Shown: positions 19,601 to 20,219 of the stretch, piece by piece
Layout: every line of letters starts with the position of its first letter
How positions within the stretch are numbered: the stretch's first letter is position 1
From: Zingiber officinale
Taxonomy: Eukaryota > Streptophyta > Magnoliopsida > Zingiberales > Zingiberaceae
Direction: 5' to 3'
NCBI RefSeq assembly: GCF_018446385.1
Contig: NC_056002.1
Span: 38,639,671-38,703,670, forward strand
DNA: 64,000 nt
The notes under the pieces: generated by a model
The model's input: the letters and a program-made list of their open reading frames with translations, nothing else
What the model was told of the DNA's origin: nothing
Databases searched by the model: none
Made by a program: the position numbers and the translations under genes

Positions 19601-20219
19601 CAGTTCTATTGGTTTTTCCTTTAACAAAATCCAGATCAAGCCTAAGCAATGCTAGATTAAAGTTATCAGGAGTAACAAATCTGAAAAACATATGGGCAAT
19701 TAAGACGGTATAGTAGCAAAACAATTAACGAAAATTTACTGAAAACGATCAAGAGTGCATACCTGCTAACTGAGATTTGATCACCAGAGGAAACTCTTAT
19801 ATGCCGACGTTGGATTGCATTGAGAGCTACATGACTGCTAGGAATGTTCTGATGAGCAGTATTTCTATGTTAAGGCTATTACAGAATGATCTTTTTTCCT
19901 CTTGTAAAATGTAAGAGTATACCAACCAAAGAAATGTAACATAGAAATTCAACGCTGTTTAGAAAGAACTATAGAATTAATTAGTGTCCGTCTCAAAGAA
20001 AACACTGTCGAACGGATAAATGGAAGGATATCGTAGCGTGAGCACGATGGAATCGCCGATGAGGACGTAGATGTCTCTTGATCCAGGGGAGGCGAACTTG
20101 TTCAGATCTGCCGGGGCGCAGTAAGCGAAGTTGGTCAGTGCGAGATCTTGGCTCGGAGTGCTCACCACGGTCAAGAGATCTGCCGCCGACGAGGAGCCGA
20201 GTCCGAACCGTGCCGCCAT
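7688..20219 (-). CDS. NSF: Vesicle-fusing ATPase NSF (N-ethylmaleimide-sensitive factor), 21 exons, 750 aa
   Basis: NSF is a hexameric AAA+ ATPase that, with alpha-SNAP, pulls apart spent SNARE complexes so that membrane fusion can continue in the secretory pathway. Exons on the minus strand: 20219-20032, 19858-19763, 19680-19596, 19513-19463, 13020-12850, 12721-12567, 12472-12364, 12251-12152, 12072-12017, 11124-11059, 10985-10903, 10780-10647, 9902-9692, 9532-9404, 9324-9264, 9182-9123, 8898-8840, 8700-8613, 8477-8355, 8082-8017 and 7849-7688. They total 2253 nt with no frame break. Residues 1 to about 200 form the N domain. D1 has Walker A GPPGTGKT (262-269), Walker B IIFDEID (327-333) and the LLRPGRLE segment. 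D2 has Walker A GPSGSGKT (541-548) and IILDDIE (598-604). The start matches the family (ALTNFAYC near residue 30). Length is normal. The last 20 or so residues (ending KNHVFSSF) differ from the usual short hydrophobic tail. Intron 4 is 6442 bp and full of transposons. Intron 1 is of the AT-AC class. Confidence 0.97.
14907..16472 (-). mobile_element. RTE-clade LINE, 5'-truncated, with perfect 16-bp target duplication
   Basis: TCATTGTGCTAACTTT occurs at 14891-14906 and 16473-16488, exactly flanking the body. On the minus strand the 3' end is GTGGGATAATG, then a TTG-repeat tail, the hallmark of plant RTE LINEs. Reverse-transcriptase C-terminal protein is readable in pieces ([20 protein letters not shown], then [18 protein letters not shown]). 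A further piece near 16450-16320 resembles the region before the RT domain. Stops and frameshifts are frequent and only the 3' half of a full LINE is present, so it is inactive. Confidence 0.9.
16827..18317 (+). mobile_element. Non-autonomous hAT-type DNA transposon with 8-bp target duplication
   Basis: GACTCAAA occurs at 16819-16826 and 18318-18325. The ends share the inverted terminal motif TGTTCTAAAA/AGGTTCTAAAA, followed by CTAGGCG-rich subterminal sequence on both sides. An 8-bp duplication with such ends indicates the hAT superfamily. No transposase frame was seen in 1491 bp. A second hAT-like element lies inside it at 17493-18095. Confidence 0.8.
17493..18095 (+). mobile_element. hAT-type MITE, GCTTGAGCT-rich family, copy 1 (nested)
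   Basis: The ends TAGGCATGTAAA and the reverse complement TAGGTCTGTAAA form imperfect terminal repeats. Flanks TTGAAAAG (17485-17492) and TTGAAAAT (18096-18103) agree at 7 of 8 bases. The interior is rich in AAGCTTGA and AGCTCG motifs. Copies 2 and 3 lie at 26427-26975 and 27055-27550. Confidence 0.75.
19859..20031 (-). other. NSF intron 1, U12-type AT-AC intron
   Basis: The exon 1/intron boundary on the minus strand is CTACG then ATATCCTTCC, the textbook U12 donor. The intron ends GCCTTAACATAGAAATAC. CCTTAAC is the U12 branch site and lies about 11 nt before the AC acceptor. Joining at these sites gives [20 protein letters not shown], which lines up with plant NSF. No GT-AG alternative joins the two exons in frame with that match. 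Length is 173 bp. Confidence 0.93.

What the first reader, a model, noticed from the sequence alone, without database searches (positions are those of the whole stretch)
19859..20031. NSF begins with an AT-AC (U12) intron
Seen: donor ATATCCTT, branch site CCTTAAC and AC acceptor about 11 nt later, and the join gives the expected NSF protein. Known: AT-AC introns are a small minority even among U12 introns, themselves rare. Inference: NSF output in this plant depends on the minor spliceosome at its first junction, which could couple vesicle traffic to minor-spliceosome activity. I do not know whether this intron has been recorded.
Basis: partly seen in the sequence, partly recalled or inferred. 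Interest (0 to 1): 0.75.

Follow-up and report, generated by a model that had tools for sequence, protein, structure and literature searches.

The report
Rare-class intron in plant fusion gene
The gene for a general membrane-fusion ATPase in a ginger-like plant very probably starts with an intron of the rare AT-AC kind, removed by the minor splicing machine; this is a good example of a known kind rather than a new phenomenon.

Summary
A 21-exon, 750-aa NSF gene lies at 20219..7688 (-). In my model 19 of 20 introns are GT-AG; intron 1 (20031..19859, 173 nt, phase 2) is ATATCCTT...CCTTAAC-11 nt-AC. The allele and a degraded paralogue share it, so it predates that duplication. Motifs alone are weak: 61 of 100 shuffled windows hold such a pair. 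Their place at the junction the protein needs carries the case. One GT-AG rival (20013..19838) keeps the frame and fits PDB NSF slightly better (35.7 v 34.8 bits), but its donor is weaker than all 19 modelled ones and Pfam CDC48_N fits worse (23.3 v 26.7 bits). Joins with better U2 sites fit NSF clearly worse. U11, U12 and U6atac candidates exist. One intact NSF locus was found, so dependence on minor splicing is a fair inference; regulatory coupling is untested. No RNA data or other plant genome was available. Verdict: U12-type AT-AC intron, new member of a known kind, possibly already catalogued. Side finding: NSF exons 13-16 recur at 34 other places; 6 of 8 fetched lie between CACTA-transposon ends.

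The parts
20032..20219 (-). NSF exon 1 (ATG at 20219-20217; 62 codons plus 2 nt, start of the N-domain)
   Evidence: open frame; aligns to PDB NSF chains from query residue 18
19859..20031 (-). intron 1, 173 nt, phase 2, AT-AC ends
20024..20031 (-). 5' splice site ATATCCTT
   Evidence: same in allele and paralogue
19869..19875 (-). branch site CCTTAAC, presumed branch A at 19870, 11 nt from the intron end
   Evidence: same in allele and paralogue
19859..19860 (-). 3' splice site AC
19977..19979 (-). first in-frame stop if intron 1 is retained (TAA)
   Evidence: translation, place counted
19763..19858 (-). NSF exon 2
19838..20013 (-). rival GT-AG intron (TCC|GTTCGA ... CCTAG|CAG), in frame, protein one residue shorter
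7688..20219 (-). whole NSF gene (coding part), 21 coding exons, 750 aa, AAA domains

Best explanation
Intron 1 of the NSF (vesicle-fusing ATPase) gene is a U12-type intron of the AT-AC subtype, removed by the minor spliceosome. Shown: sequence signals, frame, presence in allele and paralogue, and minor-spliceosome snRNA candidates in the same genome. Inferred: that U11/U12 recognise ATATCCTT and CCTTAAC, and that the AC at 19860-19859 is used. Consequence (inferred): full-length NSF from this locus, the only intact one found, needs minor splicing, and retention would give an early stop.
For: Position at the protein-required junction, phase 2, and a single 750-codon frame. The join aligns without a gap at the junction to PDB NSF chains (TLR.H) and weakly reaches Sec18 (1cr5, 16.8 bits, E 0.047), which the main rival join does not up to E 10. 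Pfam CDC48_N scores 26.7 bits for this join, against 23.3 for the GT-AG rival at 20013..19838, 19.3 for 20045..19849, 18.2 for 20097..19865 and 14.0 for 20005..19827; all are under the curated cut-off of 35.1. The main rival's donor scores -1.6, under all 19 modelled donors (0.1 to 10.1), and its acceptor -0.4 ties the lowest. Allele and both paralogue alleles keep ATATCCTT, CCTTAAC and AC. The 21 nt that are exon here but intron in the main rival are unchanged in allele, paralogue and the C5 fragment, with one change in C6. U12 (3 matches), U6atac (12) and U11 (4) pass the Rfam cut-off; the three best U6atac and the best U11 have a CCCACATCG element upstream. A table passage on 5' bias of minor introns gives 112 of 290 Streptophyta species (PMC10639083).
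Against: No transcript evidence. Motif pairs alone arise by chance. The main GT-AG rival scores slightly better against PDB NSF (88 v 85; 35.7 v 34.8 bits). The paralogue is degraded, so its intact motifs show shared origin rather than lasting selection; its 30-nt insertion in the rival's extra exon stretch keeps the frame. Duplexes of the sites with this genome's U12, U11 and U6atac are not better than shuffles (64, 123 and 224 of 500 shuffles as strong). U4atac was not found at the threshold (the tool warns that this does not show absence). The third U12 candidate lacks GTAAGGA within its match, and no U12 candidate showed the upstream element. The base before CCTTAAC is G, not the consensus T (consensus recalled).
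Confidence: 0.92

Rival explanations
1. Intron 1 is a U2-type GT-AG intron at 20013..19838; ATATCCTT is exon sequence (R-Y-P-S-I-Y-P) and the motifs are chance.
For: In frame, no stop; local score to a PDB NSF chain 88 v 85; phmmer 35.7 v 34.8 bits against 1qcs.
Against: Donor TCC|GTTCGA scores below all 19 modelled donors and the acceptor ties the lowest (the model rests on 19 introns of this one gene); Pfam CDC48_N 23.3 v 26.7 bits; no Sec18 match up to E 10; it would make the conserved 21 nt intronic; leaves an 8/8 U12 donor and a well-placed branch site unexplained.
Confidence: 0.05
2. Intron 1 is a U2-type intron with better U2 sites: 20097..19865 (donor 4.7, acceptor 4.7) or 20005..19827 (donor 1.0, acceptor 3.4).
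For: Both in frame; site scores within the range of the 19 modelled introns.
Against: They cut or replace N-domain residues: against PDB NSF 24.4 and 28.0 bits, where the AT-AC join has 34.8; Pfam CDC48_N 18.2 and 14.0, where it has 26.7.
Confidence: 0.01
3. The AT-AC splice is one of several outcomes at a weak first junction (not exclusive of the best explanation): some transcripts use other joins or retain the intron.
For: Published usage values of AT-AC sites in plants are lower than those of GC-AG sites (PMC6310983, passage); 30 in-frame GT/GC-AG joins exist in the stretch scanned.
Against: No transcript data either way; the alternatives tested fit the N-domain worse or lack site strength.
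Confidence: 0.15
4. Translation starts downstream and exon 1 is not part of the protein.
For: None found; I did not scan exon 2 for starts.
Against: Exon 1 encodes the part aligned to PDB NSF from query residue 18, and exons 1+2 differ from the paralogue with dS 0.36 and dN 0.09.
Confidence: 0.02

Closest known systems
U12-type AT-AC introns (minor introns) of plants
   Same: AT-AC ends, ATATCCTT donor, CCTTAAC branch site near the 3' end, 5' position in the gene
   Different: nothing in kind; the host gene is NSF; record in plant U12 lists not checked
Syntaxin 6 intron with AT-AC ends, marked U12 in fly and human (Table 2 of PMC2831892, passages)
   Same: AT-AC U12 intron in another gene of the SNARE machinery; intron 1 of 2 in the row
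   Different: different gene, animals
SMYD2 AT-AC U12 intron (table in PMC7367187, passage)
   Same: ATATCCTT donor, CCTTGAC branch site, AC end
   Different: phase 1, different gene, mammals
NSF chains of the PDB and yeast Sec18
   Same: protein family
   Different: intron structure of those genes not examined here

Membership tests
U12-type AT-AC intron | AT and AC terminal dinucleotides at the coding junction | tested here: met
   one in-frame GT-AG rival not fully excluded
U12-type AT-AC intron | 5' splice site ATATCCTT | tested here: met
   8 of 8; the same letters in the SMYD2 rows of PMC7367187; consensus as such recalled
U12-type AT-AC intron | branch site close to TTCCTTAAC | tested here: met
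   GCCTTAAC: core matches, preceding base differs; consensus recalled
U12-type AT-AC intron | short branch-to-3' end distance, no pyrimidine tract | tested here: met
   11 nt, ATAGAAATAC after the branch site; range recalled
U12-type AT-AC intron | stronger than chance pairing with the genome's own U11, U12, U6atac | tested here: inconclusive
   pairing possible, but 64 (U12), 123 (U11) and 224 (U6atac) of 500 shuffles are as strong
U12-type AT-AC intron | minor spliceosome present in the organism | tested here: met
   U12, U6atac, U11 over Rfam cut-off; U4atac not found; proteins not searched
U12-type AT-AC intron | removal by the minor spliceosome in vivo | not testable with these tools
   no RNA data
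U12-type AT-AC intron | conserved as U12-type in orthologues of other plants | not testable with these tools
NSF / Sec18 family | N-domain plus two AAA domains, best match to NSF | tested here: met
   best PDB matches are vesicle-fusing ATPases, E 1.6e-197, residues 18-711; AAA with 2 stretches, AAA_lid_3; CDC48_N is below its Pfam cut-off (24.1 v 35.1) and CDC48_2 just below (22.0 v 22.4) in the whole protein

The most novel reading that the evidence does not exclude
Because the only intact NSF locus found depends on this AT-AC intron, its slow or regulated removal acts as a control point that sets NSF supply, and so SNARE recycling, by minor-spliceosome activity.
Probability: 0.08. Interest if true: 0.55.

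Novelty: new member of a known kind. Interest (0 to 1): 0.3.

Why it matters
NSF is a general, probably essential fusion factor (recalled); if its only intact copy carries an AT-AC intron, minor-spliceosome mutants of plants that share it should show NSF retention, which gives a simple, testable link between minor splicing and secretion. Non-canonical splice sites are hard for gene predictors (PMC5716242, start of abstract), so NSF models may lack the correct first exon. Enrichment of minor introns in vesicle-transport genes has been reported for the fungus Rhizophagus (PMC10639083 table, passage), so the link is a known theme.

Tried and rejected
Conservation in other plants: not possible, the collections offered no other plant genome that I could search. 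Rejected as proof: the motif pair alone, duplex energies, motif conservation in the paralogue as evidence of selection (stops, missing exons and frameshifts), and homology to PDB NSF alone. Six GT donors of the in-frame list were scored; GC donors were not scored, and of the joins five were compared by Pfam and four by phmmer.

Literature: the searches showed no title or abstract start that ties plant NSF to a U12 or AT-AC intron. Searches returned no paper, searches were listed in full, and the others only in part (20 of 88; 20 of 31; 20 of 26; 10 of 152). In two papers where the word NSF was counted I looked it up and it is part of a funder's name; in others with one count I did not. The plant U12 papers that I asked for by DOI were not held, so absence from print is not claimed. 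Of PMC2831892, PMC4892727, PMC5716242, PMC10639083, PMC7367187, PMC8342452, PMC6865273, PMC6310983 and PMC7644725 I saw passages found by term; of PMC2426677 no passage (no term occurred); of all others the listing with the start of the abstract.

My first idea that the paralogue is a second working NSF was dropped. A first alignment had the allele on the wrong strand; repeated correctly.

Full report
Gene. On the minus strand of the window I assembled 21 coding exons from 20219 to 7688 by reading the sequence and checked them in a script: one frame of 750 codons, with 19 GT-AG introns and one AT-AC intron, the first. The other junctions are my own model, not transcript-verified. The protein matches vesicle-fusing ATPases of the PDB over residues 18-711 (E 1.6e-197 for 6ip2) and yeast Sec18. 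Pfam shows the AAA domains; in the whole protein CDC48_N (24.1 bits) and CDC48_2 (22.0) are below their curated cut-offs of 35.1 and 22.4.

Organism. The genome that holds the window has 3.09 Gb in 211 contigs, and the NSF loci come in pairs of large contigs. A published haplotype-resolved ginger assembly has 3.1 Gb, 11 chromosome pairs and 219 scaffolds (PMC8342452, passages). I infer ginger or a close relative; this was not tested directly.

Intron 1. It runs 20031..19859, 173 nt, phase 2, with ATATCCTT at the start, CCTTAAC near the end, and AC 11 nt after the presumed branch A. Between the branch site and the AC there is no pyrimidine tract. If retained, a TAA at 19979-19977 stops the frame.

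Chance. The window holds 6 exact ATATCCTT on both strands. Pairs with CCTTRAY and a suitably spaced AC within 2 kb number 4, against a shuffle mean of 1.22, and 61 of 100 shuffles have at least one. At spans under 250 nt there are 2, against 0.1, with 9 of 100 shuffles having one. I read the surroundings of two of the other three pairs (34661 and 15830); neither is at a visible gene junction; the pair at 46681 was not read. So the evidence is positional: both signals fall at the ends that the protein requires. A rough product (0.0022 for the donor, 0.03 for the branch site, times my estimates for AC and frame) is about 1e-5.

Rival joins. In one search there are 30 in-frame GT-AG or GC-AG joins; the wider list has 59 joins, the AT-AC one included. 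By local score to a PDB NSF chain the GT-AG join 20013..19838 comes first with 88, the AT-AC join second with 85. By phmmer they have 35.7 and 34.8 bits. Against the rival: donor -1.6, while the 19 modelled donors score 0.1 to 10.1 left out one at a time; acceptor -0.4, equal to the lowest; Pfam CDC48_N 23.3 v 26.7 bits; no Sec18 match up to E 10, where the AT-AC join gives a weak 16.8 bits, E 0.047. Two joins have better U2 sites: 20097..19865 (donor 4.7, acceptor 4.7) and 20005..19827 (1.0 and 3.4). They fit clearly worse: 24.4 and 28.0 bits against PDB NSF, 18.2 and 14.0 in CDC48_N. The site model is built on only 19 introns of this gene.

Other copies. The DNA search found the allele on C18, a paralogue on C17 and C18 near 11.7 Mb, and fragments on C5 and C6. 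The allele has identical splice signals at intron 1. Both paralogue alleles keep ATATCCTT, CCTTAAC and AC. By an automatic exon projection they are degraded: one has two stops in exon 6, part of exon 7 unaligned and shifts in exons 18 and 21; the other has a shift in exon 4, a shortened exon 7, and exons 14-18 not found. So the intron predates the duplication, but intact motifs there do not show selection. The 21 nt TGCTC...CCTAG at the start of exon 2 are unchanged in allele, paralogue and C5 and have one change in C6, as expected for exon. The 30-nt insertion of the paralogue lies in the stretch that would be exon in the main rival, but it keeps the frame. The N-domain search scored 24 of 24 first-look candidates and found no further locus, so NSF in this plant seems to rest on one intact locus.

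Machinery. U12 (3 matches, best 97 bits), U6atac (12, best 94) and U11 (4, best 78.5) pass Rfam cut-offs. The two best U12 have GTAAGGA in the expected region, the third not within its match; the three best U6atac of the four fetched carry CCCACATCG upstream, as does the best U11; that element was not found at the three U12. U4atac was not found. Computed duplexes between the splice sites and these RNAs are not stronger than shuffles.

Context in print. AT-AC introns are about 0.06% of plant splice-site pairs (PMC6310983), 81 in the representative transcripts of the Arabidopsis annotation (PMC5716242), and 13-26% of U12-type introns in four plants (PMC7367187). A table on 5' bias of minor introns gives 112 of 290 Streptophyta species (PMC10639083). 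A Syntaxin 6 intron with AT-AC ends is marked U12 in fly and human (PMC2831892). I found no listing for plant NSF, but the plant lists I asked for were not held, and I think it likely that at least Arabidopsis or rice NSF is catalogued if it shares the intron.

Verdict. A U12-type AT-AC intron, 0.92. Ordinary in kind; the single intact locus makes dependence on minor splicing a fair inference. Regulation by this intron is a guess.

Side finding. NSF exons 13-16 with their introns (window 10395-9008) occur at 34 further places, counting four split pairs once and leaving out the gene, its allele and the paralogue (42 rows; 40 of 49 candidates scored, so a lower bound; both haplotypes counted). 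In 8 of 8 places fetched the copied stretch has the same outer limits to within 3 nt, at about 93-97% identity. In 6 of these 8 both ends were read as CACTACAA...TTGTAGTG with matching 3-bp flanking repeats; one lacks the right end where the alignment stops, and in one the left end was not located. I read this as a Pack-type CACTA family that captured an NSF fragment once and multiplied; such elements are a known kind (PMC8903248, start of abstract).

Noticed in passing
window 9008..10395 (-) and 34 other genomic places, e.g. L037 2094-7379: NSF exons 13-16 with introns were captured by a CACTA-type DNA transposon (CACTACAA ... TTGTAGTG, matching 3-bp flanks in 6 of 8 fetched) and multiplied; might make small RNAs against NSF (inference).
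   Followed up: partly
L031-L034 (C17 and C18 near 11.7 Mb): A degraded NSF paralogue on the same chromosome pair; in one allele the exon 12 donor reads AT where the window has GT.
   Followed up: partly
window about 14950..16300 (-): Remnant of a reverse transcriptase (F-A-D-D-I-I-L-V-D by eye) inside the 6.4-kb intron 4 of NSF.
   Followed up: no
window 5004..5372 (-) and 37307..37759 (-): Two similar open frames with a bHLH-like stretch (EKLNQKFIALSALIP; name recalled), probably copies of one transcription factor gene; the one near 4.7 kb looks broken by eye.
   Followed up: no
L035, L036 (C5, C6): A third, diverged NSF 5' fragment that keeps the 3' end of intron 1 with an altered branch site (CATAAC, CCTAAC).
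   Followed up: partly
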